This document shows positions 101 through 55,681 of a DNA stretch of 64,000 nucleotides, one piece after another (within the stretch, counting starts at the first letter, position 1; every line of letters starts with the position of its first letter). The translations under genes were made by a program, and so were the position numbers. The notes beneath the pieces are model-generated. The model saw nothing but the letters and a program-made list of their open reading frames with translations. It ran no database searches and was not told where the DNA came from. Source of the DNA: Clostridiales bacterium (GTDB lineage Bacteria > Bacillota > Clostridia > Christensenellales > Borkfalkiaceae); contig SVHW01000009.1 of NCBI GenBank assembly GCA_015055655.1, positions 1-64,000 on the forward strand. Reading direction: 5' to 3'.

Positions 101-3328
<3,228 letters not shown>

Positions 3329-22320: not shown

Positions 22321-22382
22321 CTTTCTCTGCGCCACGAAAAAGGACACCCATCAAGGTGTCCTTTTTCGTGGCGCAGAGAAAG
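22321..22382 (-). repeat. 28-bp perfect inverted repeat spanning the tRNA-Ser 3-prime end and terminator
   Basis: Left arm 22321-22348 and right arm 22355-22382 are exact complements around the loop CATCAA. The inner part (GGACACC stem and TTTTT) is the tRNA terminator. The outer part repeats, inverted, the last 17 bases of the tRNA transcript including the 3-prime acceptor strand and CCA. Confidence 0.9.
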
Positions 22383-22458
22383 GGATTTGAACCCTTGGAT
22401 ACGTTCCCGCATCACACGATTTCGAATCGTGCGCGTTCGACCACTCCGCCATCTCTGC
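22369..22458 (-). tRNA. tRNA-Ser (CGA)
   Basis: 90 bases with encoded CCA. The acceptor stem GCAGAGA pairs with TCTCTGC, the discriminator is G, the anticodon loop reads TTCGAAA with CGA at 22422-22424, and the long variable arm is typical of serine tRNAs. The T-arm is GGGTTCAAATCCC-like. A promoter (TTGATT, 17 bp, TATAAT at 22472-22500) lies 14 bases upstream. The gene is followed at once by a terminator hairpin whose outer stem copies its own 3-prime end. It decodes UCG. Confidence 0.93.
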
Positions 22459-22565: not shown

Positions 22566-23996
22566 TTACATAAGCGTTATAATTAACTGCGAAGCCAAAA
22601 CGATTAACACCAATGCAATGGGATACGTGGACGCGTATGCCGAAGCCACGTCGTCCGTCTTCGCCGTAGATATAAGCGTACCAAGCGCAGGCGTACTGGT
22701 CATACCACCCGTAATCGAACCAAGGTTGTTAAGCAAAGGCAATTTAAGCACGTACTTACCAAGGAAGAACCCTGCAACCATAGGCACGAGCGTCATAAGC
22801 GCACCGCCTACAAAGCCCCAAGCTACGATTCCACCGCCGAATTTCGAGATTTGTTCCACAAGCGACACACCGCCGTGCACACCTGCGCCAAGCAAGAACA
22901 GCGCCAAACCGAATTCACGCATAACTTTAAGCGTGCTTTCTTTTACTTCAAGCGAGAGTTTGCCGATATGCCCAAAATGTCCAAAAACAAGGCACATAAT
23001 CAACACGCCGCCCGTCGTACCGAGCGAGAAAGTTGCGCCGTCATAGCCTTTGCCCGTCAAGGGAATCGTTATCGAACCTAAAAGCAAACCTGCTACGACT
23101 GCAAGCCCGAACGGCAAGAAACCGAAGTCTTCACACTTAAAGAATTTCGAATAATCTCTCTTTTCTTCTTGCGCCCCAAGACGTAATAAATCTCGTTCCT
23201 TTTGCATATCCGTTTTTAAAAATTTAGGTAACAGTTGTACGAACAATACAACGCCCACGACGCCGAACGGATAAGCGATTGCGTGCCCAAGCGTAATTAA
23301 GGATTCCAAATCCTCTTGATTTGCCGCGCCGACAACCGCGTCTTTCGCCGCCGAGAAACCAGGGGTTGAGGTAAGCGCGCCCGAAAGTACGCCCGACCAA
23401 TATTCAGGACCGTATTCAGGGGTTAAAAGCGTACACACTACCGCCACGAGCGTACCCGTCAAAATAATAACGATACCAAGCACGATATACGTTTTGAAAT
23501 TCTTCGCCAAGTTCTTGAAGAAATTCGGTCCTGCAATAAAACCTACGCTCCCCACGAACATAACCAACCCGATATTTTGAATCGTACCCTTGAAGGTATT
23601 GACGACGGACGAGCTTTCCGTTAAATGAAAGCCAGAAAAAACGCCTGCGTCTTCGGGAATAAGCGTGCAAAGAAAACCAACCAAAATAGCAACGAGGAAT
23701 ACCCCTGCCGTACCAAGCGATACGCCTTTAATATTGATACCGCCCAGCAAATAACCCACGGCTATTACCACAAATGCTATCGTAAATAATACGAACGTAG
23801 AGCCGAAATTGAATACGTTTTTCGCACCTTCTACTTCAACTCCGTCTTTAATGTTTGGATTATAAATCGCGCTCAATACGCACCAAACGGCAATACCTGC
23901 CACTACCGCAAGCGCAATCGAAATCCAAAGCCATTTTAAGCTTTTCTTTCTCTTCTTTTCCTCTTGAAGAACTACTTCTTCATTTTGATTTTCCAT
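22566..23996 (-). CDS. AspT/YidE/SucE-type (AAE family) transporter, likely dicarboxylate exporter
   Basis: Membrane carrier of 476 residues with about 11 segments in two homologous halves. The signature (S/G)xLTSTPG/A recurs as GALTSTPGFSAAKDAV and GGMTSTPALGTLI, as in the aspartate:alanine exchanger family that includes the succinate exporter SucE1. The central loop is only about 35 residues and lacks the RCK_C domains of YidE and SucE1. AGGAG lies 9 bases before the ATG. It directly follows frdA, so I infer export of succinate, the end product of the operon, perhaps in exchange for malate, fumarate or aspartate. Confidence 0.75.
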   Translation of the reverse strand: MENQNEEVVLQEEKKRKKSLKWLWISIALAVVAGIAVWCVLSAIYNPNIKDGVEVEGAKNVFNFGSTFVLFTIAFVVIAVGYLLGGINIKGVSLGTAGVFLVAILVGFLCTLIPEDAGVFSGFHLTESSSVVNTFKGTIQNIGLVMFVGSVGFIAGPNFFKNLAKNFKTYIVLGIVIILTGTLVAVVCTLLTPEYGPEYWSGVLSGALTSTPGFSAAKDAVVGAANQEDLESLITLGHAIAYPFGVVGVVLFVQLLPKFLKTDMQKERDLLRLGAQEEKRDYSKFFKCEDFGFLPFGLAVVAGLLLGSITIPLTGKGYDGATFSLGTTGGVLIMCLVFGHFGHIGKLSLEVKESTLKVMREFGLALFLLGAGVHGGVSLVEQISKFGGGIVAWGFVGGALMTLVPMVAGFFLGKYVLKLPLLNNLGSITGGMTSTPALGTLISTAKTDDVASAYASTYPIALVLIVLASQLIITLM

Positions 23997-24015
23997 TTTC
24001 TTCCACTCCTAAAAT

Positions 24016-24066
24016 GCGGACGAAAACGCACAAAGCGTACATACCCCGTGCGTTTTGTCCTTTTTA
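24016..24066 (-). other. Long hairpin between frdA and the exporter gene
   Basis: GGAC.AAAACGCAC pairs with GTGCGTTTTCGTCC with one bulge around a 16-base loop. There is no good T tract on the minus strand. It may attenuate or stabilise, setting the exporter level relative to the reductase. Confidence 0.5.
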
Positions 24067-24085
24067 TTAAATTATTATCGCGAAA

Positions 24086-25690
24086 TTAGTTCGCTTGTCT
24101 TCTATAATCGGGAAGGAGTTTCGGCGATACTACGTCCGTAGCAATACCCGCTTCTTCCAACTCTTTTTCAAACTCGTCAACGTGCGCAAGCGTAAGTTCT
24201 TTCAGTTCTACACTCTTCCACTTTTCACCCGCTTGTTGACCTGCGTTTCTACCGAATACGATGATGTCAAGCAACGAGTTGCCCATCAATCTGTTCGTGC
24301 CGTGAATACCGCCTACCGCTTCGCCTGCAACGTACAAGTTTTCTACGCACGTCATACCGTTTGCGCCAATATCCAAACCGCCGTTTTGATAGTGCAATGT
24401 GGGATAAATCAAGATAGGCTCTTTACGGATATCGATACCGTATTTGCCGAACATACGAAGCATAGCAGGGATACGTTTTTCAATCGTGCCTTCGCCGTTG
24501 AGAATATCAATCAGCGGCGTGTCAAGCCATACGCCTTCGCCGTCCGTCGTCTTGATACCCTTTTTGTTTTGTTTGCACTCACGGATAATCGAAGAAGCCG
24601 TAACGTCACGCGTTTCGAGCGAGTACACGAACGCTTCGCCGTCTTTATTGACAAGCTGTGCGCCGAGCGAACGTACCTTTTCCGTTACAAGCGCCCCATA
24701 AATTTGCGTGGGCTCTGCCGCGCCCGTAGGGTGATATTGCAACGTTTCGGGATACAACAATTTTGCGCCTGCACGGTAACCGAGCACGAGCCCGTCTGCC
24801 GTCGCACCGTAGTGGTTGGACGTAGGGAAACCTTGATAATGCAATCTACCTGCACCGCCCGTCGCGATAACGACAGTCTTTGCTCTTGCCACCATAATTT
24901 CCTTCGTTTCCATATTCAAAAGCACTGCGCCGGCTACTTTGCCGTCGGTGTCTTTGATAAGCTCGATTGCCGACGTGAAATCTACCACCGTAATGCCACG
25001 GTTGAACACTTCGTCACGAAGCGTACGCATGATTTCCGAACCGGAATAGTCGCGGCAAGCGTGCATACGTTTTCTCGACGTACCGCCGCCGTGCGTGGTT
25101 ACCATCGTGCCGTCTTCTTCTTTATCGAACATTACGCCAAGATTGTTCAGCCACAAAATCGCCTCGGGGGCTTCGTTGACAAGCTTATACAAAAGTTCGG
25201 GCTTATTCTTAAAATGTCCACCGCCAAGGGCGTCAAGATAATGCGTAGCAGGGCTATCGTTAGGTTTATCCGCCGCTTGAATACCGCCTTCTGCCATTGC
25301 CGTGTTTGCGTCGCCCAAACGAAGCTTCGTCACAATCATAACGTTTGCGCCGCGTTGGTGTGCTTCTATCGCCGCGGAAGAGCCTGCGCCACCGCCGCCA
25401 ATAACGAGCACGTCTACGTCGTAATCAATCTTCGTGAGGTCGATTTTCATATCTTTTACACGAGAGTGACCTTGTAACAAGTTAGCAAGTTCGTGCAAAA
25501 CTTTTCCACCTTTATTTTTACCAACTTTCAATTCTTCATACGCAGAAGTGATATAATCGGGGTGGAATTGCGCCAAAACGGCGTCTTTTTCTTCTGCCGT
25601 CATACGCGCGTGCAAATTTTCAATACGGGAAGCGCGGCTGGCTTCCACTTTCTTCATCGATTCCAATTGTTCATCGGTATAGTGATACAT
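24086..25690 (-). CDS. frdA: Fumarate reductase flavoprotein subunit, soluble type
   Basis: Reduces fumarate to succinate; 534 residues. Seen: an N-terminal helical extension of about 90 residues, the FAD motif VIGGGGAGSSAA (residues 97-108), the substrate-site Arg in LETRDVTASSI, the His in HYQNGG and Arg in HGTNRLMGNSLLD. The C-terminal helical domain of SdhA/FrdA is missing. Asn129 (DANTAMAEGGI) stands where SdhA/FrdA has the His that binds FAD covalently, so FAD is probably non-covalent. No membrane subunit is encoded nearby. It is last in the Flx-Hdr operon; electrons should come from FrdB. L-aspartate oxidase is the main alternative but lacks the FrdB partner. Confidence 0.88.
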   Translation of the reverse strand: MYHYTDEQLESMKKVEASRASRIENLHARMTAEEKDAVLAQFHPDYITSAYEELKVGKNKGGKVLHELANLLQGHSRVKDMKIDLTKIDYDVDVLVIGGGGAGSSAAIEAHQRGANVMIVTKLRLGDANTAMAEGGIQAADKPNDSPATHYLDALGGGHFKNKPELLYKLVNEAPEAILWLNNLGVMFDKEEDGTMVTTHGGGTSRKRMHACRDYSGSEIMRTLRDEVFNRGITVVDFTSAIELIKDTDGKVAGAVLLNMETKEIMVARAKTVVIATGGAGRLHYQGFPTSNHYGATADGLVLGYRAGAKLLYPETLQYHPTGAAEPTQIYGALVTEKVRSLGAQLVNKDGEAFVYSLETRDVTASSIIRECKQNKKGIKTTDGEGVWLDTPLIDILNGEGTIEKRIPAMLRMFGKYGIDIRKEPILIYPTLHYQNGGLDIGANGMTCVENLYVAGEAVGGIHGTNRLMGNSLLDIIVFGRNAGQQAGEKWKSVELKELTLAHVDEFEKELEEAGIATDVVSPKLLPDYRRQAN

Positions 25691-25701
25691 AGCGCTTCTC
25701 C

Positions 25702-26376
25702 TTATTTTTCAATTTCTCTATGGTTATAGAGATTTTTTTGTTCTTCAAGCGGCGTGTTCATAATCGCTTCCAATGCCGCTTTACAATCGCCCGCGTCGAT
25801 TTCCGCAACGCGGTTGATAAGATGTTCGCTCTTCGGCGCAAGATATTTACCCGTAAGTCTACGCGTAAGCAACGCCACTTGGGGATGCGAAATCCCTGCA
25901 GGGCAACGGGAAGAACATACGCCGCACATTACGCAGTCGAAGCTCTCTTCCGCAGCCTTTTCGTATTCGCCGCGTTGCGCGTACGCGATATATTGCATAA
26001 CGTTGAGTTCTTGCGTACAGCTCTTCGTACAAGCGTTGCAGCCGATACAAGAATAGATTTCGGGGTAGAGCTGCATCATAATTTGTTGCGTAGGCTTAAT
26101 CTTCTCCATATCGTAAACTTGTTTTACAAGGGGGAAGAACGGAAGCGTCGCCACGTACATACCCTCTTCAACTTGTTGTTGACAAGCCAAGCACGTCTTT
26201 AATTCTTGTTGCCCTTTAATACGGTAAATCGTGGCGCAAGCACCGCAAAAGCCGTTTCTGCAACCGCAACCGCGAACAAGCTGATACCCAGCGTATTCCA
26301 TCGCTTTCATAATCGTCAAACTTTCCGGCACTTGATAGCGTTTACCGAAAAGATATACGTTTACCATTTTTTCCAT
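25702..26376 (-). CDS. frdB: Fumarate reductase iron-sulfur subunit
   Basis: Electron carrier to FrdA; 224 residues from the ATG at 26376 (AAGGAG 9 bases upstream; the ORF opens further up but that part overlaps flxA). Seen: plant-type [2Fe-2S] ligands in GCGCRNGFCGACATIY and CLAC, then two CxxCxxxC clusters, CIGCNACTKSC and CVMCGVCSSRCPAG. Unlike methanogen TfrB it has no CCG domains; the heterodisulfide-type domain is provided by separate HdrB. It lies 13 bases after flxA and 11 before frdA. Confidence 0.87.
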   Translation of the reverse strand: MEKMVNVYLFGKRYQVPESLTIMKAMEYAGYQLVRGCGCRNGFCGACATIYRIKGQQELKTCLACQQQVEEGMYVATLPFFPLVKQVYDMEKIKPTQQIMMQLYPEIYSCIGCNACTKSCTQELNVMQYIAYAQRGEYEKAAEESFDCVMCGVCSSRCPAGISHPQVALLTRRLTGKYLAPKSEHLINRVAEIDAGDCKAALEAIMNTPLEEQKNLYNHREIEK

Positions 26377-26389
26377 CGTCGTTTTCTCC

Positions 26390-27217
26390 TTAATACTCAT
26401 TGGGAAGTTCGTCAAGTTCCGTCATACGGAATACGGGGCCGTCTTTGCATACGAACTTGTCGCCTACGTTACATCTGCCGCATTTGCCGATACCGCATTT
26501 CATACGAAGTTCCAGCGTCGTAAATACGTTGGATTTGTCAAAACCGAGTTCCAAAAGCCCTGCAAGCGTGAACTTAATCATTATGGGAGGGCCGCAAAGT
26601 ACCGCCGTCATATTGGGATTTAACCCCAACTCTTTTACGTAGGCAGGAACAAACCCAACGTGTCCGTCCCAATCGTCTTGAGGACGGTCAATCGTAAGAT
26701 AAACTTCCGTATTCGGTTCGTTCATCCACTCCGTCTTGATTTCTTCAATATCCACAAGGTCGTCCTTGCTTCTTGCGCCGTAAACGATAACCACTTTGCC
26801 GTAATTTTCACGATAATGACGCACGTAGTTGATAACACTACGCAAAGGCGCAAGACCGATACCGCCTGCGATAAAGAGCAAGTCTTTGCCCTTAAAATCT
26901 TCCTCTACGGGGAAATTTTTGCCGTACGGGCCGCGCACGGTGATTTGTTGACCTACTTCCATCGCGTGCAATACGTTCGTTACGCAACCGCATTTTTTAA
27001 TGGAAAATTCAATAAATTCTTTATTCGTAGGCGAGGACGTAATCGAAAACATACATTCCCCTACGCCAGGTACGGAAACCATTGCGCATTGGCCGGGCAT
27101 ATGTTCGAACAGTTTCTTGCCGTCCGTGCCTACTACGCGAAACGTTTTAACGTCGGGCGTATCTTTACGAATATCCGTGATGACGCCAACTTTGGGAATT
27201 AAATTTTCATTAGTCAT
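26390..27217 (-). CDS. flxA: FlxA-like NAD(H)-FAD oxidoreductase subunit
   Basis: NAD(P)H-oxidising flavoprotein of the ferredoxin reductase family, 275 residues, related to sulfhydrogenase gamma and AsrB. Seen: PGQCAMVSVPG and GECMFSITSSP (FAD), RGPYGKNFP, LFIAGGIGLAPLRSVI (NAD site) and the C-terminal [2Fe-2S] set CGIGKCGRCNVG. It overlaps flxB by 8 bases. In Desulfovibrio FlxABCD-HdrABC this subunit is the NADH entry. Here it stands next to frdB. Confidence 0.85.
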   Translation of the reverse strand: MTNENLIPKVGVITDIRKDTPDVKTFRVVGTDGKKLFEHMPGQCAMVSVPGVGECMFSITSSPTNKEFIEFSIKKCGCVTNVLHAMEVGQQITVRGPYGKNFPVEEDFKGKDLLFIAGGIGLAPLRSVINYVRHYRENYGKVVIVYGARSKDDLVDIEEIKTEWMNEPNTEVYLTIDRPQDDWDGHVGFVPAYVKELGLNPNMTAVLCGPPIMIKFTLAGLLELGFDKSNVFTTLELRMKCGIGKCGRCNVGDKFVCKDGPVFRMTELDELPNEY

Positions 27218-28238
27218 TTTTCTTTCCTCCCAGCGTCTTAATTACTTTTACAATATTGAGATGTTGCGGGCATTTGTTCACACATCTACCGCAACCTACA
27301 CACGAATACAATCCGCCGTTTTGCGAAGGATAGTACACGAGTTTATGCATAAATCTTTGACGGAAACGTTGCATTTGCGTCGTACGGGAATTGCCGTGCG
27401 CCATCAACGTGAAATCGGAATACATACACGAATCCCAGCAACGATAACGGATAACGCCTTCGTTCGTCTTGAAATCGCGCACGTCAAAGCATTGACACGT
27501 CGGGCATACGAACGTACACGTTCCGCAACCAAGGCACGCTTCGCTCATTTCTTCCCAAACCGTTTCGTTGAACAGCTCGTTCAAGTTTTCAGGTTGGAAA
27601 CGGCTTAAATCTAAGTTGGAGAAAGGAAGTTCGTCAATGATTGCCTTCACTGCCGCTTGTTGCGCCGCCACTTCCGCTTCGCCGCCGTTTTCCGTAAATT
27701 CTTTCACGATAGCCGTCAGCTTTTCCCCTTTTTCGGTGTTTGCCTGCCAGTACATATAGTTTTCGTCCATCCACGTCGTAACGTCGCCTTGGGGCGCGGT
27801 GGCGTCGATGCCGAATACTTTACAGAAACAGCTATCCTCAGGTTTGGAGCAAGCCATCGTTACGATAACGCTTGCTTCTCTTCTCGTTTGATAATAGGTG
27901 TCAACGGGTTCAGCAAGGAATACTTTATCAAGCACGTCTATTGCCTTATAGTCGCACGCGCGCACCCCGAAGAGTACGAACGGGGCTTTTTCATTGCGGA
28001 TATCGATGACTTCGATATTCTTGCCGTCCGTTTTGAATTTCATCATATTTTCGCTTTGGGGGAAGAATAAATCCTTGGGGGATTTTACCGTTTTTAACGT
28101 TTCCACCGACGTTTCTACGCCGTCTTCCCACAAACCGTAGTTTACCTGTCCCGCCTTTTTAATCGGCATAAACAAGGGCATATTTGCGGAGATTTTTCCG
28201 TATACTTCGCTCAATTTAACTTTTGCTATCTTCAACAT
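27210..28238 (-). CDS. flxB: FlxB-like ferredoxin-type electron transfer subunit
   Basis: 342 residues. Two [4Fe-4S] motifs lie in the C-terminal half: CLGCGTCTFVCPTCQCFDV and CVGCGRCVNKCPQHLNI. The N-terminal part has the sulfhydrogenase beta/AsrA fold (FVLFGVRACDYKAIDVLDKVF, and SVIVTMACSKPEDSCFC). It transfers electrons between FlxA and the rest of the module. Stop and start with flxC overlap (TAATG) and it overlaps flxA by 8 bases, so the stoichiometry is probably fixed by translational coupling. Confidence 0.82.
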   Translation of the reverse strand: MLKIAKVKLSEVYGKISANMPLFMPIKKAGQVNYGLWEDGVETSVETLKTVKSPKDLFFPQSENMMKFKTDGKNIEVIDIRNEKAPFVLFGVRACDYKAIDVLDKVFLAEPVDTYYQTRREASVIVTMACSKPEDSCFCKVFGIDATAPQGDVTTWMDENYMYWQANTEKGEKLTAIVKEFTENGGEAEVAAQQAAVKAIIDELPFSNLDLSRFQPENLNELFNETVWEEMSEACLGCGTCTFVCPTCQCFDVRDFKTNEGVIRYRCWDSCMYSDFTLMAHGNSRTTQMQRFRQRFMHKLVYYPSQNGGLYSCVGCGRCVNKCPQHLNIVKVIKTLGGKKND

Positions 28239-29215
28239 TATTTTGCCTCCCCGTTAAATACGTCTTTCGGCTCTACGTCGCCCTCCGTATAAGAGGTAAG
28301 CGGCGTTTTGCCTTCGTCCGTTTCCCCTGCTTGGAATTGACCGTATAACCCGTCGATGTCCTTGATGAACTTACGGTTGAGAAGGTGCAAAGGAATATGT
28401 TGAGGACAAACTCTCGAACACTCGCCACAGTCGGTACATCTACCAGCCACGTGGAAAGCACGAATTACGTGGAAGAGTTTTTCTTCAAATTCCGAATCGT
28501 TCGCCTTTGCCGCGATACCCGATTGCGGATTGTCAAATACGCATTTCAAGCACGAGCAAGCAGGACATACGTTGCGGCAAGCGTTACAACGGATACATTT
28601 GGAAAGTTGTTCCTTCCAAAACGCAAATCTCTCGTCTGCCGTCATCGCTTCGAGTTTTTCTACCTCTTCAAAGCGGTTAACGTCGCGTTCGGGACGTTCG
28701 TGCAAAATAATTTCTTCATCCTTTACTTGATGCGTCTTGTTACATACGGCGCATTTGGAAAGCACTACTTCCGGTTTATACAACGTATATTCTCCACACG
28801 TCGTCACCACTTTCACGTCTTTTTCTACGACGTCAACGCTCTTGATAATACCGTCCGTCTTTTCCTTAATTGCCTCGATATTCAATTTTGCAAGACATTC
28901 TACGGCGATTACGTAAACGTTTTCACGCTTGATACGGTGTTCTTTAACAAGTTGGTTAAAGCTGTACGTATCGCAGGGTTTCAAAAATACAGCCGTTTTG
29001 CCCTCTTTTTTGCTCATTTGAATAAGGTATTTGGACAGATTTGCGCCGCAGAACCAGTCGTACGTGAAATCTTTAAGTTCTTCTACCGTTTCAAAGGAAG
29101 CAGGCGTAGGGTCATAGAAGAATTCGCCTTTTTTCCAACCGATTACGCGCGCCACTTCGCCGCTTTCCAACAAAGCCTTTGCGCGTTCGAGCATTTTCAA
29201 TTCAACGTCTTTCAT
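28238..29215 (-). CDS. flxC: FlxC-like iron-sulfur subunit
   Basis: 325 residues. The ATG at 29215 is preferred because AGGAGG lies 9 bases upstream; a GTG at 29224 abuts the site. The N-terminal half has an FrhB/FdhB-like domain (FLKPCDTYSFNQLVKEH, VYVIAVECL and a Cys pair CAVC), and two [4Fe-4S] motifs follow: CIRCNACRNVCPACSCLKC and CTDCGECSRVCPQHIP. It resembles flavin- and ferredoxin-handling subunits of hydrogenases and Flx. The flxD stop lies one base before its start. A ferredoxin-docking role is inferred. Confidence 0.8.
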   Translation of the reverse strand: MKDVELKMLERAKALLESGEVARVIGWKKGEFFYDPTPASFETVEELKDFTYDWFCGANLSKYLIQMSKKEGKTAVFLKPCDTYSFNQLVKEHRIKRENVYVIAVECLAKLNIEAIKEKTDGIIKSVDVVEKDVKVVTTCGEYTLYKPEVVLSKCAVCNKTHQVKDEEIILHERPERDVNRFEEVEKLEAMTADERFAFWKEQLSKCIRCNACRNVCPACSCLKCVFDNPQSGIAAKANDSEFEEKLFHVIRAFHVAGRCTDCGECSRVCPQHIPLHLLNRKFIKDIDGLYGQFQAGETDEGKTPLTSYTEGDVEPKDVFNGEAK

Positions 29216-29216
29216 C

Positions 29217-29672
29217 TTATTCACCCTCCTTTACGCGAAGGTCGGTAATGCGTTTGTTTTCACCCAAGTCGGTTATCGTCTTCACGAAATCGTTCATAAC
29301 CGCGGAGAAACGCGCGCCTTCCGCTGCGGATACCCACTCTACGCGCGTACGTTCTTTCTCAATCCCCATATAATCTAAGAAACTGAACAAGAGCGCCATT
29401 CTTCTTCTCGTATAGTAGTTGCCCGTTACGTAATGGCAATCCCCGGGGTGACAACCGCAAAGGATAACCCCGTCTGCCCCTTGTTGGAAGGCTTTGAGCA
29501 CGAACGTGGGGTTTACGCGACAAGAACAGGGTACGCGGATAATCTTTACGTTTGCAGGATAGCTAAGTCTGCTAGAACCTGCAAGGTCTGCCCCAGCATA
29601 CGAACACCAGTTGCAACAAAAGGCAACGATGTTAGGCACAAATTCTTTCTTTTCGGTGCTTACTTCTTGCAT
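29217..29672 (-). CDS. flxD: MvhD/FlxD electron-transfer subunit
   Basis: 151 residues, the MvhD (methyl-viologen-reducing hydrogenase delta) family with a [2Fe-2S] cluster. Seen: FCCNWCSYAGADLAGSSR, VPCSCRVNPTFVLKAF and CGCHPGDCHYVTGNYYTRRRM. In methanogens and in Flx-Hdr it carries electrons from the hydrogenase or FlxABC to HdrA. It overlaps hdrA by 13 bases and is followed one base later by flxC, a good sign of a stable complex. Confidence 0.93.
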   Translation of the reverse strand: MQEVSTEKKEFVPNIVAFCCNWCSYAGADLAGSSRLSYPANVKIIRVPCSCRVNPTFVLKAFQQGADGVILCGCHPGDCHYVTGNYYTRRRMALLFSFLDYMGIEKERTRVEWVSAAEGARFSAVMNDFVKTITDLGENKRITDLRVKEGE

Positions 29673-31651
29673 ATTGCTTCCACCTCCGACATAATTTGTT
29701 TCGAGCTAAATCCCTTCAAATCCATTGCCCCAGAAGGACAGGTTACCGTACAAGCGCCACAACCTTGACATACCGCAGGGTTCACCGACGCTACGCGACG
29801 GATTTCCGTTTTACCGCCGCCAAGACGGAATTCTTTATCCACGTACGTAATCGCACCGTAGGCGCATACGTTGGCGCATTGGCTACAACCGTTACACATA
29901 TTTTCGTCGGGCGTAGCTACGCAAGGGTTCGTCTTTAACTTGTCTTTTACCAGCAAGCCGATGACCTTCGCCGCGCAAGCAGACGCCTGCGATACCGTTT
30001 CGGGAATATCCTTCGGGCCTTGACATACGCCTGCAAGATATACGCCTGCCGTGGGGCTTTCCACGGGACGAAGCTTCGCGTGCGATTCCGTCAAGAAATT
30101 GTTGGTGTCGATACTTGCCGTCAACAGCGTGGCAATTTTTCTCACCGCGGGTTCGGGTTCAATCGCCGCAGCCAATACTACAAGGTCAGATTCAATCGTA
30201 ACTTGTTCGTTATCGATAAGGTTCGAGCCTTGTACCATCAATTTGCCGTTTTCGTTATATACTTTCCCGACCATACCCTTGATATAGTTTACGCCGTATT
30301 GTTCTACCGCGCGGCGGAAGAATTCGTCGTAGTTTTTACCGGGGGTACGCACGTCGATATAGAATACGTTGACCTGCGTATCGGGATATTTTTCACGGAT
30401 AAGCATTGCGTGTTTTGCCGTATACATACAGCAAATCTTCGAGCAGTACGGCTTGCCGCAACCGCTGGTATCACGCGAGCCTACGCATTGAATAAACGTA
30501 ATCGTCTTGGGATGTTCGTTATCCGAAGGACGGAGCAATACGCCGCCCGTAGGGCCAGCTGCGTTCATCAATCTTTCCAATTCCAAAGACGTAATTACGT
30601 CTTTGTTATCAGCGTAGCCGTATTCGTTAAACGCCGTAAGTTCGATAGGCTTAAAGCCCGTCGCAACGACGATTGCGCCGTACTGACGTTCGATAAAGCT
30701 ATCTTTTTGCTCGTAATCAATCGCGCCTACGCCGCAGAATTTTTGACAAATACCGCATTTGCCCGTCTTCAATTTAATACATTGTTCAGGGTCGATTACC
30801 GCAACGTTGGGGATAGCCTGCGCAAACGGGATATAAATAGCAGGACGAGTGTTCAAGCCCATATTAAAGGTGTTAAGCCCTTTCTTCGAAGGACATTTTT
30901 CCATACACAGCTTACAACCCGTACACTTCGTTTCATCAACGAATCTCGCTTTGCGACGAATTTTTACGTTGAAATTACCAACGAAGCCTTTTACTTCTTC
31001 CACTTCGCTATACGAAAGAATATCAATCTTTTCGTGTTGCGCGCAATCCACCATCTTCGGCGTCAAAATACAAGCCGAGCAGTCGAGCGTGGGGAACGTT
31101 TTATCCAACTGCGCCATACGGCCGCCGATGGTTGCGTTCTTTTCTACGATATCTACCTCAAAGCCTGCGTCTGCAATGTCAAGCGCCGCTTGAATACCTG
31201 CGATACCGCCGCCGATAACGAGCGCGCGTTTTACAACGGGGCTTTCCCCTGCCATAAGCGGCGCGTTGAGTTTTACTTTCGCAATCGCCGTACGCACGAG
31301 GATAACCGCTTTTTCCGTCGCCTCGTCGATATCTTTATGAATCCACGAGCAATGTTCGCGGATATTGGCAACTTCTACCATATACGGGTTCAGCCCAGCC
31401 GCTTCCGCCGCTTTGCGGAAGGTGGCTTCGTGCATTCTCGGCGAACAAGAGCCAATGACGATACCCGTAAGGTTATGTTCTTTAATTGCCTGTTTGATGA
31501 GTTGCTGTCCGTTTTCGGAGCACATATATTGATAGTTTGCGGAATATACGACGCCAGGTTCGTTTTTCATAACTTCCGCAACTTTTACAACGTCGACCGT
31601 TGCTGAAATGTTGCTACCGCACCAACAAATAAAAACACCTATTCTTTGCAT
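29660..31651 (-). CDS. hdrA: Heterodisulfide reductase subunit A, bifurcating flavoprotein
   Basis: 663 residues, the full-length form. Seen: an N-terminal domain with FICWCGSNI and SCSPRMHEATF, the FAD motif VIGGGIAGIQAALD (about 143-158), TFPTLDCSACILTPKM (a Cys-rich HdrA hallmark), CTGCKLCMEKCP, CGICQKFC, and two C-terminal [4Fe-4S] sets CNGCSQCANVC and CQGCGACTVTCP. HdrA is the site of flavin-based bifurcation in methanogens: one electron goes uphill to ferredoxin, the other to HdrBC. The organism has no methanogen genes here, so its partner is more likely fumarate via FrdAB. Confidence 0.95.
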   Translation of the reverse strand: MQRIGVFICWCGSNISATVDVVKVAEVMKNEPGVVYSANYQYMCSENGQQLIKQAIKEHNLTGIVIGSCSPRMHEATFRKAAEAAGLNPYMVEVANIREHCSWIHKDIDEATEKAVILVRTAIAKVKLNAPLMAGESPVVKRALVIGGGIAGIQAALDIADAGFEVDIVEKNATIGGRMAQLDKTFPTLDCSACILTPKMVDCAQHEKIDILSYSEVEEVKGFVGNFNVKIRRKARFVDETKCTGCKLCMEKCPSKKGLNTFNMGLNTRPAIYIPFAQAIPNVAVIDPEQCIKLKTGKCGICQKFCGVGAIDYEQKDSFIERQYGAIVVATGFKPIELTAFNEYGYADNKDVITSLELERLMNAAGPTGGVLLRPSDNEHPKTITFIQCVGSRDTSGCGKPYCSKICCMYTAKHAMLIREKYPDTQVNVFYIDVRTPGKNYDEFFRRAVEQYGVNYIKGMVGKVYNENGKLMVQGSNLIDNEQVTIESDLVVLAAAIEPEPAVRKIATLLTASIDTNNFLTESHAKLRPVESPTAGVYLAGVCQGPKDIPETVSQASACAAKVIGLLVKDKLKTNPCVATPDENMCNGCSQCANVCAYGAITYVDKEFRLGGGKTEIRRVASVNPAVCQGCGACTVTCPSGAMDLKGFSSKQIMSEVEAICKK

Positions 31652-31683
31652 TTTATTTACTCTCTTTTTTTAGATTTTTATCG

Positions 31684-32070
31684 TTATTTATTATATTTTC
31701 TGTATGCGCTTACCAACAATTGTTGAGGGATAAATTCGTCAACGATAGGCGGTATATCTTCCGCTTTCACGCCGTTGTTTCCTTGCATACGCACCACCGT
31801 ATCGCGCACCGCTTCCACTACCGCAGCCGGCGCAACGCCTCTGGGACAACGCTCTACGCACGCCATACAAGATAAACAGTTCCAAATTGCCTTACAAGCA
31901 AGCAATTCGTCAATTTTTCCTCTTTCAAGCATAGAAACGAATTGGTGCGGCTTGATATCCATATCTTTGAACGCAGGACATCTACCTGAACATTTGCCAC
32001 ACTTCATACACTTTCTTACGTCCGTGCCGCTTAATCTTTGCATATTTTCAATGCGTTCTTCTTTCGTCAT
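31684..32070 (-). CDS. hdrC: Heterodisulfide reductase subunit C
   Basis: 128 residues with two [4Fe-4S] motifs, CMKCGKCSGRCPAF and CLSCMACVERCP. It passes electrons from HdrA to HdrB. Its start overlaps the hdrB stop (32067-32070) by four bases, the usual BC coupling. Gene order B-C-A-D differs from the A-B-C-D seen in Desulfovibrio flx-hdr. Confidence 0.92.
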   Translation of the reverse strand: MTKEERIENMQRLSGTDVRKCMKCGKCSGRCPAFKDMDIKPHQFVSMLERGKIDELLACKAIWNCLSCMACVERCPRGVAPAAVVEAVRDTVVRMQGNNGVKAEDIPPIVDEFIPQQLLVSAYRKYNK

Positions 32071-32846
32071 TGTTCCACCCCCAACGCTTCGGCAAGAAGC
32101 TCGGTAAAGTATTTCACAGGCAAGATGTTATCGCCGTTTACCTGCAAGTTGTACAGGCAGAGCGGACAAGCGGTAATCACTTCTTCCGCACCCTTTTCTT
32201 TTGCGCTGGAAAGCACTTTACGGCTCTTTTCCTTAGGTAAATCGCTATTCTTCAAAGACACGTACGCGCCACAACACTCGTTACGGAAGGGATACACGAC
32301 GGGCGTACCGCCGATGGCACGGATAAAGTCTTCGATAATCGTGGGATTTTCGGGATTGTCAAACGCCATTACGCCGCTGGGACGGAGCAAAAGACAGCCG
32401 TAGTACGCACCGATTTTTCTATTCAACGGTTTTACTACCGCTTTTTTAATTGCATCGAATCCCACTACGTTTTTCAACATTTCGAGATAATGCAATACTT
32501 CCGTTTCCCCTTTATACGGTTCGTCCAACTTCATATAGTTGTTGGCGCGGAATTGAATATCAGCGTTTGTTTTCATATCTTCGTTTGCGCGTTTGATGAC
32601 GTTGTGGCAAGCCGAGCAAAGCGTAAGCAATTTTCCGCCGTGGTGTTTTGCATAATCCAATGCGCGCACCGCTGAAAGCTTGGTTGCTATTTCGTCCGTA
32701 CCCATTTTGTACACGGCGCCGCAACATTGCCAATTTTCGATTTCTTCCATCTCCACGCCCAAAACCTCTGCGCAACGACGCGCCGTTACGTCAAGCTCTT
32801 TCGCTTTCGTTTTGAGCGTACAGCCGGGATAGTAACTGATTTTCAT
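32067..32846 (-). CDS. hdrB: Heterodisulfide reductase subunit B
   Basis: 259 residues with two complete CCG domains: YYPGCTLKT, WQCCGAV and LCSAC; then YYGC, NECCGAYVS and CPLC. In HdrB these ligate two non-cubane [4Fe-4S] clusters that reduce the heterodisulfide. Because both sets are intact, a disulfide or thiol cofactor could be the acceptor here, or HdrBC may act only as a relay to FrdB. No DsrC partner is nearby. Confidence 0.93.
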   Translation of the reverse strand: MKISYYPGCTLKTKAKELDVTARRCAEVLGVEMEEIENWQCCGAVYKMGTDEIATKLSAVRALDYAKHHGGKLLTLCSACHNVIKRANEDMKTNADIQFRANNYMKLDEPYKGETEVLHYLEMLKNVVGFDAIKKAVVKPLNRKIGAYYGCLLLRPSGVMAFDNPENPTIIEDFIRAIGGTPVVYPFRNECCGAYVSLKNSDLPKEKSRKVLSSAKEKGAEEVITACPLCLYNLQVNGDNILPVKYFTELLAEALGVEQ

Positions 32847-32873
32847 AATACTTTCTACCTCTTTACGAGTATA

Positions 32874-34250
32874 TTATTTTTGCGGATACGCCATTTCTTC
32901 GGGACGGAAGACTTCGTCAAATTTTTCCGCCGTTAAGAAACCGAGCGCAACGCAAGCCTCTTTCAAGGAAATGTTTTCCTTGTATGCCTTCTTTGCTGTC
33001 TTCGCTGCGTTTTCATAGCCGATATACGGGTTGAGCGCCGTAACCAACATCAAAGAATTGTAAAGATTGTGATGCATTTTTTCTTTGTTCGCTTTAATAC
33101 CCGTTACGCAGTTCTTTTCAAACGATACGATACCATCTGCAAGCAAACGCACCGATTGCAAGAAATTGTAAATGATGACGGGCATAAATACGTTGAGTTC
33201 GAAATTCCCTTGCGACGCGCCTACGCCTACCGCAACGTCGTTTGCCATAACTTGTACGGCAACCATCGTCATCGATTCGCATTGCGTAGGGTTCACTTTA
33301 CCGGGCATAATCGAAGAACCGGGTTCGTTTTCGGGAATAAAGATTTCACCAAGTCCGTCGCGAGGGCCGCTAGCAAGCCATCTTACGTCGTTGGCAATCT
33401 TCATAAGGTTACAAGCAAGCGCTTTCAACGCGCCGTGCGCAAACACGAGCTCGTCCTTCGCTGTCAACGCGTGATATTTATTTTCCGCCGTAACGAATTT
33501 CTTTCCCGTCAGTTCGCTGACCTGCGCCGCCACTTCTTCGGCAAAGCCTTTGGGGGCGTTCAAGCCCGTGCCTACCGCCGTGCCGCCAAGCGCAAGTTCT
33601 TTCAATCCGTCAAGCGACAACGCAAGTTGCGCTTTCGTCTTTTCTACCATATTTCTCCAACCGCTAATCTCTTGCGAGAAAGCAATGGGAACGGCGTCTT
33701 GCAAATGCGTTCTACCACTCTTAACGATACCTTCGTTTTCTTCTTCCAAACGTTTGAGCGTCGCAATAAGCGTGTCCATTGCAGGGAAGAGTTTGTCTTC
33801 AATAGCAACAACCGCCGCGATGTGCATTGCCGTAGGGAAGGTGTCGTTGGAACTTTGGCTCTTATTGATATCGTCGTTGGGGTGCAACAGCTTTTTACCG
33901 GCGATTTCGTTGCCGCGGTTTGCGATAACTTCGTTGGCGTTCATATTCGATTGCGTGCCGCTACCCGTTTGCCATACGACAAGCGGGAAATGTCCGTTCA
34001 AGCTGCCCGAAATCACTTCGTCGCAAGCCGCGCAAATGGCGTCTTTCTTTTCTTCGGGAAGTTTCCCAAGTTTCCAGTTAGCAAGCGCCGCCGCTTTTTT
34101 TAATACGCCGAACGCTTTCGTGATTTCACGAGGCATTACTTCTTCGCCGATACGGAAGTTTTGAAAACTTCTTTGCGTTTGCGCCGCCCAGTATCTATCT
34201 GCAGGGACTTGCATTTCCCCCATCGTGTCTTTTTCAATACGGTATTCCAT
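32874..34250 (-). CDS. fumC: Fumarate hydratase, class II
   Basis: Interconverts malate and fumarate; 458 residues from the ATG at 34250 (GGAG 8 bases upstream). Seen: [23 protein letters not shown] and the signature [15 protein letters not shown]. Class II fumarase is iron-free. It sits between mdh and hdrB in one operon, so the route malate to fumarate to succinate is encoded together. Confidence 0.95.
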
Positions 34251-34265
34251 TTTTATTTTCTCCAA

Positions 34266-35216
34266 TTAGATTTCAATTTGCGAGATAACGTCTTTCAATA
34301 CCTTCGCGCTGTTTTGGAACTTCGCCACTTCTTCGTCCGTCAGCTTCGGCGTGAGCGTCTTAACAACGCCTTTCGAACCGATTACGCACAACGTAGAAAG
34401 CGCTACGTCGGATACGCCGTATTCGCCGTCGAGTACCGTGGATACGGGCAATACGGTGTACGCGCTGGAATAGATGCTGTCAACGATTTGTTTTACGGAC
34501 GCTGCGATACCGTAGAAAGTAGCGCCTTTGCCAGCGATAATCTTACCGCCCGATTTCTTTACGTATTCTTCTACTTCTTCACGAGTGTAAGGCATCGCTT
34601 TCAACGTTTCGTTATCACAAACAGCCGCTTCGTAATCAGCCAAAGCCATACCGGAAATATCCGCCATCGACCAAGCCACGAACGAGCTGTCGCCGTGTTC
34701 GCCCAAAACGTACGCGTGGACTTGTTTTTGGTTTACCGAATACAACTCGGAAAGGCGCGTTCTCAAACGGATACTATCAAGCGTGCAACCCGTACCGATA
34801 ACGCGGTTCTTGGGAATACCCGTAATTTTGCAGAATACGTAGGTGAGTACGTCTACGGGATTTGCAACGAACAAGTACAACGCGTCGGGCGCGTGTTTAA
34901 CGATTTGCGGAGCGATGCTCTTTAAAATGTTTACGTTCGTTTGCGTAAGGTCGATACGAGATTGACCGGGCTTTCTGCCTACGCCCGACGTAATGATAAC
35001 GATATCCGAACCTGCCGCGTCTTCATACGTGCCACAGTAGATTTTGACGGGATGCAAATAGGGCGTCGCTTGTACGATGTCCATCGCTTCCCCTTTTGCC
35101 TTATCCACGTTGACGTCGATGAGTACGATTTCCGCAACCGAACCCGTCGCAACGAGCGTGTAGGCAACCGTTGCGCCTACTGAACCTGCACCGATGATAG
35201 TAACTTTGTTGTTCAT
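34266..35216 (-). CDS. mdh: NAD-dependent malate dehydrogenase (LDH/MDH superfamily)
   Basis: 316 residues from the ATG at 35216 (CGGAGA 8 bases upstream); an ATG at 35333 lies in the leader. Seen: IIGAGSVGATVAY (NAD), VLIDVNVDKAKG (Asp34, NAD rather than NADP), GVGRKPGQSR and LGEHGDSS with catalytic His174. The key position, Gln102 in lactate dehydrogenases, is Arg81 here (RKPG), the malate dehydrogenase residue. This agrees with its place before fumarase and the fumarate reductase set. Reduces oxaloacetate to malate with NADH. Confidence 0.8.
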   Translation of the reverse strand: MNNKVTIIGAGSVGATVAYTLVATGSVAEIVLIDVNVDKAKGEAMDIVQATPYLHPVKIYCGTYEDAAGSDIVIITSGVGRKPGQSRIDLTQTNVNILKSIAPQIVKHAPDALYLFVANPVDVLTYVFCKITGIPKNRVIGTGCTLDSIRLRTRLSELYSVNQKQVHAYVLGEHGDSSFVAWSMADISGMALADYEAAVCDNETLKAMPYTREEVEEYVKKSGGKIIAGKGATFYGIAASVKQIVDSIYSSAYTVLPVSTVLDGEYGVSDVALSTLCVIGSKGVVKTLTPKLTDEEVAKFQNSAKVLKDVISQIEI

Positions 35217-35281
35217 GTTTTTATCTCCGTTTTTTATTTTTTCCTTCTTTTTATCGCCTTTGAACGTTCCCTGCGCGCATA

Positions 35282-35297
35282 CGCATATATATATGCG
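35282..35297 (-). other. Perfect AT-rich palindrome in the mdh leader
   Basis: CGCATATATATATGCG lies in the about 110-base leader of the mdh operon. It could form a hairpin in the mRNA or be a DNA operator. Confidence 0.4.
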
Positions 35298-35334
35298 CGT
35301 GCGATAAGGGCATTTTATTACACGATACGACATT

Positions 35335-35363
35335 ATTATATCATATTTTTTTTATAATCACAA
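35335..35363 (-). promoter_or_regulatory. Promoter of the mdh-fumC-hdr-flx-frd operon
   Basis: TTGTGA (35358-35363) and TATAAT (35335-35340) with 17 bp between. The only good promoter found for the twelve genes down to 22.5 kb. Confidence 0.75.
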
Positions 35364-35435: not shown

Positions 35436-35454
35436 GCTCTGCTATAAGCAGAGC
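35436..35454 (-). terminator. Terminator after the DUF308-like gene
   Basis: An 8-bp stem GCTCTGCT/AGCAGAGC, loop ATA, followed on the minus strand by nine T. It separates this gene from the mdh operon. Confidence 0.9.
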
Positions 35455-52546: not shown

Positions 52547-53725
52547 TCAAACGAGTTTTTTAAGCGTTTCCATTACGTAATTGCCAAATTCTTCGCAGGT
52601 CGCGCCCGTGTCACGACCGGTAATAACCATCTTCTTTTCTTCGAACGAACAAATATCCAAGGCTTTTTCCAATTTATCCGCCCTATCTTGCAAACCGATA
52701 TGCGACAGCAACATTACGCACGCACGGAGCATCGAACAAGGGTCTGCATATTTACCTCTACCTTCCGTTACCATACGCGGCGCGCTGCCGTGGATAGCCT
52801 CGAACATTGCGTATTTCTTACCGATATTGGCGCAGCCTGCCGTGCCTACGCCGCCTTGGAATTCCGCCGCCTCGTCCGAAATAATATCGCCGTACAAGTT
52901 GGGCAAAAGCAATACTTTGAAATCACGGCGACGTTTTTTATCCACGAGTTTCGCCGTCATAATATCTGCGTACCACTCGTCCGTGATAATATCGGGATAC
53001 ATATCCGCTACCTTATGGCAATCTTCCAAGAAATTACCGTCCGTCGTCTTAATAACGTTGGCTTTGGTAACCAGCGATACTCTGCCCAAACCGTTTTTAT
53101 GCGCGTAGTCGTATGCAAGACGGGCAATTCTGTCCGAGCCTTGTTTGGTGGTAATCGTAAAGTCTACCGCCAAATCTTCCGTAACGTTGAAACCGCTGGA
53201 ACCTACGGCGTAACCGCCTTCCGTGTTTTCGCGGAAAATCGTCCAGTTAATTCCCTCTTCGGGCACTTTTACGGGACGGATATTCGCAAACAAATCAAGT
53301 GCCTTTCTCATCGCTACGTTTGCCGATTCGATATTGGGCATACCGCTGCCCTTTTGCGGCGTCGTCGTAGGACCTTTTAAGATAATGTGGCACGATTTCA
53401 ATTCCGCCATAACGTCGTCGGGAATCGCCTTACCCTTAGCAATACGATTTTCAATCGTCAACCCTTCAATGTCCTTAAATTCTACTTTACCCGATTTTAC
53501 CAAATCGTCCAAAATAAATTCGAGCACTCTTCTTGCCTGCGCGGAAATAATCGGGCCGATGCCGTCGCCGCCGCAAACGCCGATTTTAATGCAATCGAGC
53601 GCGCTGTAATCAACAAAATCGCCTTGCGCTTTCATATCCTCTACCCGAACGAGTTGCTTTTCGAGGATTTTTCTAAATTTCTCGCAAGCGACGTCTAATT
53701 GCGCTTTATATTCTTCCATTTCCAT
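52547..53725 (-). CDS. icd: Isocitrate dehydrogenase (isocitrate/isopropylmalate family)
   Basis: Oxidises isocitrate to 2-oxoglutarate; 392 residues. Seen: GVCGGDGIGPIISAQARRV, KGPTTTPQKGSGMPNIESANVAMRKALDLF (substrate loop), INWTIFRENTEGGY, the Asp ligands in PNLYGDIISDEAAEFQGG and the NAD-binding IHGSAPRM. There is an N-terminal extension of about 45 residues. NAD or NADP use is not decided. The isopropylmalate enzyme is unlikely because aconitase and citrate synthase precede it. It closes the operon. Confidence 0.88.
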   Translation of the reverse strand: MEMEEYKAQLDVACEKFRKILEKQLVRVEDMKAQGDFVDYSALDCIKIGVCGGDGIGPIISAQARRVLEFILDDLVKSGKVEFKDIEGLTIENRIAKGKAIPDDVMAELKSCHIILKGPTTTPQKGSGMPNIESANVAMRKALDLFANIRPVKVPEEGINWTIFRENTEGGYAVGSSGFNVTEDLAVDFTITTKQGSDRIARLAYDYAHKNGLGRVSLVTKANVIKTTDGNFLEDCHKVADMYPDIITDEWYADIMTAKLVDKKRRRDFKVLLLPNLYGDIISDEAAEFQGGVGTAGCANIGKKYAMFEAIHGSAPRMVTEGRGKYADPCSMLRACVMLLSHIGLQDRADKLEKALDICSFEEKKMVITGRDTGATCEEFGNYVMETLKKLV

Positions 53726-53736
53726 ACTATTGCTCC

Positions 53737-55665: not shown

Positions 55666-55681
55666 AATCGTACCCACTTTA

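What the first reader, a model, noticed from the sequence alone, without database searches (positions are those of the whole stretch)
22566..35363. Predicted soluble electron-bifurcating NADH:fumarate reductase encoded with malate dehydrogenase, fumarase and a succinate-type exporter
Seen: one uninterrupted minus-strand run mdh, fumC, hdrB, hdrC, hdrA, mvhD/flxD, flxC, flxB, flxA, frdB, frdA, with overlaps or gaps of a few bases, from a single strong promoter. Known: FlxABCD-HdrABC of Desulfovibrio oxidises NADH and splits electrons between ferredoxin and a disulfide; HdrA is the bifurcating flavoprotein; methanogen TfrAB couples Hdr-type domains to fumarate. Inference: here FrdAB is the high-potential branch, so NADH reduces fumarate while also reducing ferredoxin. 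The fumarate/succinate couple near +30 mV leaves enough energy for this, like the butyryl-CoA/Etf system. This would be a membrane-free energy-conserving succinate fermentation. I know of no described complex with exactly this composition.
Basis: partly seen in the sequence, partly recalled or inferred. Interest (0 to 1): 0.92.

Follow-up and report, generated by a model that had tools for sequence, protein, structure and literature searches.

The report
Soluble electron-splitting fumarate reductase operon
A bacterium related to gut Clostridia carries an operon that probably lets it oxidise NADH with fumarate while also charging ferredoxin, making succinate without membrane enzymes; the idea was already published for another bacterium and still awaits proof with purified protein.

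Summary
The operon is real: mdh, fumC, hdrB, hdrC, hdrA, flxD, flxC, flxB, flxA, frdB, frdA and an AspT-type exporter, minus strand. Its linkage is not unique. Of 151 family genomes 50 have this FrdA; 49 of these have HdrA, 43 within 4.1 kb on the same strand. All 51 named loci with enough upstream DNA keep hdrBCA-flxDCBA-frdBA. Ilyobacter polytropus has it with aspartase in place of fumarase.

It is not undescribed. PMC7282089 (2020) reports the same 'succinate operon' in Pseudoclostridium thermosuccinogenes and cites a 2019 preprint on an electron-bifurcating fumarate reductase. I found no biochemical proof.

Added here: FrdAB is modular, occurring with other Hdr arrangements (10 of 35 phylum contexts) or without Hdr nearby (19 of 35, six of them near a contig end). 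In the window's genome Rnf, complex I/Ech, Men proteins and ATP synthase were not found, so the ferredoxin has no known ion-pump outlet; Nfn-like and [FeFe] hydrogenase genes are candidate outlets. Best reading: bifurcating NADH:fumarate reductase, 0.62. New member of a known but unproven kind.

The parts
34266..35333 (-). mdh: LDH-type malate/lactate dehydrogenase; true start probably near 35219
   Evidence: Ldh_1_N/Ldh_1_C; L-LDH equivalog over cut-off; Arg at the LDH Gln position
32874..34265 (-). fumC: class II fumarase
   Evidence: TIGR00979 734.4 bits, cut-off 664.75
32067..32846 (-). hdrB: two CCG domains with the ten cysteines of two CCG sets
   Evidence: PF02754; aligned to solved HdrB chains; Cys 9, 41, 42, 77, 80 and 151, 191, 192, 227, 230
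31684..32070 (-). hdrC: two 4Fe-4S motifs
   Evidence: TIGR03290 60.7 bits, below cut-off
29660..31651 (-). hdrA: bifurcating-type flavoprotein, only full-length copy found in the genome
   Evidence: aligned over residues 3-660 to solved HdrA 5odc_A, 694 bits; own-genome search
29217..29672 (-). flxD/mvhD: FlpD domain
   Evidence: PF02662 188.8 bits
28238..29224 (-). flxC: 4Fe-4S protein
   Evidence: Fer4_8 37.6 bits
27210..28238 (-). flxB: HydB/AsrA-like 4Fe-4S protein
   Evidence: Fer4_22 104.9 bits; ShyB/HydB/AsrA models below cut-off
26390..27217 (-). flxA: FAD- and NAD-binding protein, presumed NADH entry
   Evidence: NAD_binding_1, FAD_binding_6, DHODB_Fe-S_bind
25702..26415 (-). frdB: one 2Fe-2S and two 4Fe-4S motifs; true start probably near 26376
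   Evidence: Fer2_4, Fer4_9; Cys list; alignment A2
24086..25690 (-). frdA: fumarate reductase-type flavoprotein with about 90 extra N-terminal residues and no Succ_DH_flav_C match
   Evidence: TfrA model best at 352.4 bits, below cut-off; PF00890 251.5 bits; invariant H320, T336, E337, R340, R361, H433, R467
22566..23996 (-). AspT-type exporter, candidate succinate exporter
   Evidence: PF06826 and TIGR01625 over cut-off; next to frdA in 55 of 67 loci
35335..35363 (-). candidate extended -10 promoter
   Evidence: 10 of 12 consensus, TG before second hexamer; such matches not enriched over shuffles
35436..35454 (-). terminator-like hairpin just upstream of the operon
   Evidence: 8 pairs, then a T run

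Best explanation
The operon encodes a soluble FlxABCD-HdrABC-FrdAB complex. FlxA takes hydride from NADH; electrons pass through FlxB/FlxC and the FlpD protein to the HdrA FAD, which splits them. One branch reduces ferredoxin. The other runs HdrA-HdrC-HdrB-FrdB to the FrdA FAD and reduces fumarate. Net: 2 NADH + fumarate + oxidised ferredoxin give 2 NAD+ + succinate + reduced ferredoxin. Mdh and FumC supply fumarate from oxaloacetate made by GTP-type PEP carboxykinase; the AspT protein exports succinate. In this host the ferredoxin most likely feeds the Nfn-like pair and the [FeFe] hydrogenase, since Rnf, complex I/Ech and ATP synthase were not found. Shown: gene content, linkage, residues, gene inventory. 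Inferred: the physical complex, electron path, bifurcation, direction, transport substrate, ferredoxin outlets.
For: Linkage: 49 of 50 FrdA+ family genomes have HdrA, 43 within 4.1 kb on the same strand, the other 6 on different contigs. 51 of 51 named loci with at least 8.6 kb upstream hold the core in one order, fumC before it in 46. The same modules occur in another order, frdBA-hdrBCA-flxDCBA (L071, L074, L081, L177); on the FrdA tree the Flx-Hdr label needs 4 changes, at least 3 forced by well-supported branches. The fumarate source is swapped for aspartase in Ilyobacter polytropus, reported as lacking detectable cytochromes and fermenting fumarate. HdrA matches solved HdrA end to end; HdrB keeps both CCG motifs, by a loose pattern, in 66 of 67 hits, and FrdB its three-cluster cysteine pattern in 103 of 113. 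FrdA catalytic residues are invariant in 15 of 15 aligned (roles recalled from E. coli FrdA). NCBIfam TfrB matches FrdB with its N-terminal part and HdrB with its C-terminal part. No second FrdA or HdrB in the genome, FrdC/D at best E 0.23. GTP-type PEPCK present.
Against: FrdAB of the same family has no hdr gene nearby in 19 of 35 phylum contexts read (six of these within about 2.4 kb of a contig end), and 4 of 39 genomes have no HdrA match at all, so FrdAB can take electrons from something else. HdrB keeps a full CCG set, so a thiol product is not excluded. 35 of 50 FrdA+ family genomes have no RnfC match, so the usual payoff for ferredoxin is missing in most. Nothing here shows bifurcation or a complex. 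FrdA and FrdB models are only moderately confident (pLDDT 72.6 and 68.3).
Confidence: 0.62

Rival explanations
1. Two separate, co-regulated enzymes: Flx-HdrABC reduces an unknown disulfide with NADH, with ferredoxin, as proposed for Desulfovibrio, while FrdAB is reduced by another protein or by the thiols.
For: HdrB keeps both CCG motifs. FrdAB stands without hdr genes nearby in many genomes. TfrAB of methanogens oxidises thiols (recalled).
Against: FrdB itself has no CCG match; HdrB is the only HdrB-like protein found in the genome; Flx-Hdr and FrdAB are linked in two different orders, and FrdAB also lies beside two other Hdr arrangements.
Confidence: 0.15
2. A complex exists but is linear: NADH reduces fumarate through Flx-Hdr without obligatory ferredoxin reduction, since this host has no Rnf or Ech to use the ferredoxin.
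For: No RnfC match in any of the 17 FrdA+ genomes of the own genus sampled; no complex I/Ech membrane or large subunits by tblastn.
Against: HdrA is intact over its length against solved HdrA; other possible ferredoxin outlets, an Nfn-like pair and a hydrogenase, are present.
Confidence: 0.11
3. The complex runs mainly backwards, as a confurcating succinate dehydrogenase.
For: Related frdBA sits with sucCD-, fumarase- or 2-oxoglutarate oxidoreductase-like genes in other lineages (gene names by inspection of translations).
Against: Here the neighbours are mdh, fumC and an exporter, with GTP-type PEPCK in the genome: a reductive, product-forming arm. Strongly uphill with NAD+ as acceptor.
Confidence: 0.05
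4. FrdA acts on something other than fumarate/succinate, for instance aspartate as in NadB.
For: NadB models score not far below TfrA (279 vs 352 bits, both below cut-off).
Against: FrdB partner, fumarase or aspartase neighbours; best structural matches are E. coli FrdA and mycobacterial Sdh1.
Confidence: 0.04

Closest known systems
'Succinate operon' of Pseudoclostridium thermosuccinogenes (PMC7282089; preprint 10.20944/preprints201912.0288, not seen)
   Same: By its figure legend: fumarate hydratase, a locus-tag run that counts as seven genes (steps of five) for the Flx-Hdr complex, two for fumarate reductase, one possible succinate transporter; same count and order as the window. Same assumed ferredoxin coupling.
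   Different: That organism is reported to have Rnf and Ech; neither was found in the window's genome. The window has mdh in front. I could not fetch its sequence, so kinship is untested.
FlxABCD-HdrABC of Desulfovibrio (Ramos et al. 2015, seen only as a cited reference)
   Same: All seven subunits by domain.
   Different: No FrdAB in the name or in what I recall; acceptor proposed to be a disulfide.
rTCA clusters with tfrAB, korABCD and flxABCD-hdrABC in Thioflavicoccus and tubeworm symbionts (PMC6315080)
   Same: Fumarate reductase genes interspersed with flx-hdr; a joint complex was suggested (passages).
   Different: Autotrophic carbon fixation; tfrAB type, with 2-oxoglutarate oxidoreductase genes in the cluster.
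Thiol:fumarate reductase TfrAB of methanogens
   Same: FrdA is closest to the TfrA model; the TfrB model spans FrdB-like and HdrB-like regions in one chain.
   Different: FrdA scores about half the TfrA cut-off (352 vs 718); subunits here are separate and beside an NADH module.
8-methylmenaquinol:fumarate reductase SdhABE / MfrABE
   Same: A CCG protein (SdhE model 139 bits to HdrB) beside an Frd pair.
   Different: No strong match to E. coli Men proteins; all scores below cut-off.

Membership tests
P. thermosuccinogenes-type 'succinate operon' | fumarase, seven Flx-Hdr genes, two Frd genes, one transporter in one run | tested here: met
   against the figure legend read
P. thermosuccinogenes-type 'succinate operon' | sequence kinship of FrdAB with that organism's | not tested
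   its record was not among what I could fetch; the named-genome scan kept the 80 best of 575
P. thermosuccinogenes-type 'succinate operon' | fumarate reduction coupled to ferredoxin reduction | not testable with these tools
   PMC7282089 also only assumes it
FlxABCD-HdrABC | all seven subunits with expected domains | tested here: met
FlxABCD-HdrABC | NADH-dependent disulfide and ferredoxin reduction | not testable with these tools
   needs protein
Fumarate reductase / succinate dehydrogenase flavoprotein | FAD domain and substrate-binding His, Thr-Glu, Arg residues | tested here: met
   PF00890; invariant residues, roles recalled
Fumarate reductase / succinate dehydrogenase flavoprotein | C-terminal Succ_DH_flav_C domain | tested here: not met
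   no such match among the Pfam hits
TfrAB thiol:fumarate reductase | NCBIfam TfrA / TfrB cut-offs | tested here: not met
   352 of 718 and 38 of 385 bits
Quinol:fumarate reductase (FrdABCD) | membrane anchors FrdC/FrdD and menaquinone synthesis | tested here: not met
   FrdC and FrdD of E. coli at best E 0.74 and 0.23; MenB and MenE no match to E 1; MenC, MenD, MenF weak partial matches (E 0.010, 0.001, 0.95). The futalosine route was not tested
SdhABE / MfrABE | SdhE cut-off of NCBIfam | tested here: not met
   139 of 500 bits

The most novel reading that the evidence does not exclude
FrdAB with the N-extension is an exchangeable fumarate-reducing cartridge that has been plugged into several electron engines (Flx-Hdr, double-HdrA, HdrBC alone, cytochrome-b-type partners). 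In the window's genus it is used with no ion-pumping outlet for ferredoxin, so fumarate serves purely to drive NADPH and H2 formation in the cytosol: a bifurcating fermentation without any membrane energy step.
Probability: 0.35. Interest if true: 0.65.

Novelty: new member of a known kind. Interest (0 to 1): 0.45.

Why it matters
Succinate formation by fumarate reduction is classically a membrane process with quinones and often cytochromes. A soluble enzyme that spends the fumarate potential on ferredoxin would explain succinate formation in cytochrome-free anaerobes and would add fumarate to the acceptors of HdrA engines. The operon is found in many animal-gut Clostridia assemblies and in a cultured fusobacterium, and its published counterpart lives in a thermophile that can be transformed (PMC9044749), so the proposal can be tested.

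Tried and rejected
Considered and set aside: quinone-linked fumarate reductase (no anchors or strong Men matches); L-aspartate oxidase (scores not far off, but partner genes and fold matches point to Frd/Sdh); lactate dehydrogenase for the first gene (passes the L-LDH cut-off but carries the malate-type Arg); an artefact of one assembly.

Led nowhere: the AlphaFold model of FrdB (pLDDT 68.3) was too weak to use. That of FrdA (72.6) only confirmed the fold and showed helices in the N-extension. A FrdB-HdrB complex was not tried: the tool takes single chains. My first pattern for the Mdh residue failed on all 40 rows and was redone. No acetate kinase or F-type ATP synthase match was found with E. 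coli queries; divergent forms could be missed. ATP synthase was rechecked by PF00006, acetate kinase was not.

Rows dropped and limits: the phylum search gave 61 of 398 genomes at E<=1e-60; I counted only the 39 genomes (40 copies) scoring 602 bits or more, the rest (259 bits or less) being ordinary Sdh/Frd/NadB-like. Five of the 40 copies (G199, G330, G355, G495, G535) were judged by coordinates only. The HdrA list was cut, so the 15 of 39 is a lower bound. Of the 19 contexts without hdr, six (L063, L064, L073, L076, L077, L171) lie within about 2.4 kb of a contig end on one side. The tree used 55 rows: 18 of 73 close Flx-linked loci drawn at random, the window and 36 others; the program flagged L163, L165, L168, L169 and L176 as long branches of unsure place. 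Seven of the 80 named loci were cut too short to show a flx or hdr gene. The ten FrdB rows that fail the cysteine pattern: three end at a contig end, L096 is short, L134, L137, L144 and L168 lack the first Cys of the 2Fe-2S motif, L113 lacks another, and L163 is the outgroup.
Full report
OBSERVATION. The run mdh (34266-35333), fumC, hdrB, hdrC, hdrA, flxD, flxC, flxB, flxA, frdB, frdA (24086-25690) and the AspT-type exporter (22566-23996) is present on the minus strand. Family scans agree with the labels, with a doubt about the first gene: it passes the L-lactate dehydrogenase equivalog cut-off and a malate dehydrogenase subfamily cut-off but not the malate dehydrogenase equivalog. It has Arg where lactate dehydrogenases have Gln (alignment), as do all 40 homologues in the fetched loci (32, 8 read). 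That Gln/Arg change separates lactate from malate specificity (recalled). FrdA has about 90 residues before the FAD domain and no Succ_DH_flav_C match. HdrB has the ten cysteines of two CCG sets. The promoter claim rests on one good match in a region with no excess of such matches.

THE HOST. The window is part of contig 18 of a 1.377 Mb genome, 96.7% complete, with one full-length HdrA. The closest named loci are metagenome assemblies labelled Clostridia or Clostridiales, many from deer, sheep and other ruminant guts, and Candidatus Scatosoma; NCBI places that genus in Clostridia incertae sedis.

LINKAGE. In 151 genomes of the family FrdA is found in 50 and HdrA in 54 (E<=1e-60), 49 in common. 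Of these 43 have both on one contig, same strand, 3.9-4.1 kb apart; in six they lie on different contigs. One FrdA genome has no HdrA (G113, a 51% identical partial gene) and five HdrA genomes no FrdA. In 398 genomes of the phylum 39 have the N-extended FrdA; 35 of these have some HdrA, against 143 of 398 overall (Fisher p 3e-13, not corrected for kinship). The 14 genomes of other families in the same class that are listed had neither. HdrA lies within 20 kb, same strand, in 15 of 39 by coordinates, a lower bound, and beside frdBA in two more when read (L173, L174). The exporter follows frdA in 55 of 67 with at least 1.5 kb downstream. Of the 29 shorter loci 28 show a tail of the same order by script, and the 29th (L154) has fumC plus the whole core.

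MODULARITY. I read 35 of the 40 phylum copies with flanks, the window included: 6 Flx-Hdr; 6 with hdrA and flxD but another input, among them a 1071-residue protein matching HdrA in three stretches; 4 with hdrBC only; 19 with no hdr gene nearby, six of these near a contig end. Among the 19, three sit beside what look like pyruvate carboxylase genes in genomes with no HdrA match; others beside fumarase-, malic enzyme- or succinyl-CoA synthetase-like genes (names from reading the translations); and two were confirmed beside a ferredoxin-cytochrome b561 protein (L170, L172), a possible membrane form. In two families the order is frdBA-hdrBCA-flxDCBA rather than hdrBCA-flxDCBA-frdBA. On a quick FrdA tree of 55 rows the Flx-Hdr label needs 4 changes, at least 3 forced by supported branches. 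Gains and losses cannot be told apart, and some rows are long branches, but the modules have met or parted more than once. This speaks for functional coupling and equally shows that FrdAB can work with other donors.

OUTSIDE THE PHYLUM. Ilyobacter polytropus DSM 2926 (Fusobacteriota) has aspA-hdrBCA-flxDCBA-frdBA followed by an aspartate aminotransferase family gene; its FrdA is 66.6% identical. A fumarate-making enzyme of another kind in fumC's place is good evidence that fumarate is the substrate. [quoted passage not shown] An assembly labelled Treponema also carries the operon (L141), but metagenome binning may err. Seven other plasmid records, six of them Burkholderiales genera, hold FrdA homologues of 43-48% identity; the one read, Cupriavidus metallidurans, has a frdB-like gene but no hdr gene within 8 kb.

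ENERGY CONTEXT. With E. coli queries the own genome gave no match to RsxA, D, E, G better than E 0.2 (RsxB and RsxC only ferredoxin-like stretches), none to NuoB, CD, H, L, M, N better than E 0.5, and no strong match to Men proteins or FrdC/D. RnfC stays far below its cut-off (39.9 vs 245.95 bits) while four control genomes pass. RnfC is found in none of the 17 FrdA+ genomes of the own genus sampled and in 15 of 50 FrdA+ family genomes. The only PF00006 match over cut-off is Rho-like. ATP synthase is found at E<=1e-50 in 12 of 19 genus members and not in 7 including this one, so its lack is patchy and could partly be incompleteness. Other ion pumps were not tested. Present: GTP-type PEP carboxykinase (541 bits), PFOR, PFL and Pta homologues, an NfnA/NfnB-like pair, and a NuoE-NuoF-[FeFe] trio whose large subunit passes NCBIfam's NADH-dependent group A6 model (841 vs 765). 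Acetate kinase was not found.

MECHANISM. HdrA aligns with solved HdrA across its length. In solved HdrABC the path is HdrA-HdrC-HdrB (recalled). The TfrB model covers FrdB and HdrB as parts of one chain, a natural fusion that makes a direct HdrB-FrdB step credible. With E0' of +33 mV for fumarate/succinate and -320 mV for NAD (both in passages of PMC5861303) and about -420 mV for ferredoxin (recalled), the bifurcating reaction is downhill by roughly 49 kJ/mol (my arithmetic). Without Rnf the reduced ferredoxin could yield NADPH through Nfn or H2 through the hydrogenase; whether this hydrogenase uses ferredoxin is unknown.

LITERATURE. PMC7282089 (passages) describes the 'succinate operon' of P. 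thermosuccinogenes: fumarate hydratase, Flx-Hdr complex, fumarate reductase and a possible succinate transporter, about fourfold up under CO2 limitation (its discussion adds: not significant for all subunits). It assumes ferredoxin coupling 'as proposed previously', citing the 2019 preprint by Koendjbiharie and van Kranenburg (title seen in its reference list; not held). PMC6315080 (passages) suggested that flx-hdr, tfrAB and korABCD products form a complex in sulfur bacteria. Searches of the open-access library listed no paper that I recognised, from listing or passages, as purifying such a complex; most subscription papers are not covered. Among solved structures, going by molecule names, HdrA's five strong matches are CoB-CoM heterodisulfide reductases; a sixth, partial one (6tjr_A, 131.7 bits) is a 349-residue protein labelled fumarate reductase/succinate dehydrogenase flavoprotein domain protein, which I did not follow. 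I saw no Flx-Hdr or Frd-Hdr complex by name.

VERDICT. The new points are its breadth, the aspartase-linked form in an isolate, the modular re-use of FrdAB, and a host that seems to lack the known means to turn the ferredoxin into an ion gradient.

Noticed in passing
52547-57073: Minus-strand genes for a homocitrate-synthase-like protein (possibly Re-citrate synthase), aconitase and an isocitrate/isopropylmalate-type dehydrogenase; with the operon this could make a horseshoe TCA pathway.
   Followed up: partly
G000 (own genome): No F- or V-type ATP synthase and no acetate kinase found in a 96.7% complete genome; ATP synthase is patchy in the genus, 12 of 19 sampled.
   Followed up: partly
L170:6656-7645, L172:8430-9425: frdBA followed by a ferredoxin-cytochrome b561 protein: a candidate membrane-bound form of the same FrdAB.
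   Followed up: partly
L069:10535-13747: 1071-residue protein matching HdrA in three stretches, between hdrA and flxD-flxC-frdBA.
   Followed up: no
phylum HdrA matches: Dozens of the listed HdrA genes contain one in-frame TGA, perhaps selenocysteine (not counted exactly); none of the 15 linked to frdA does.
   Followed up: no
101-3328: 1075-residue protein with collagen-like GEKGDQG repeats followed by repeats of a leucine-rich type, probably a surface protein (by eye).
   Followed up: no
L163:7761-9560: FrdA homologue (47% identical, from query residue 36) on a Cupriavidus metallidurans megaplasmid, with a frdB-like gene but no hdr gene nearby.
   Followed up: no
22369-22458: tRNA-Ser (cga) directly downstream of the operon, same strand.
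   Followed up: no
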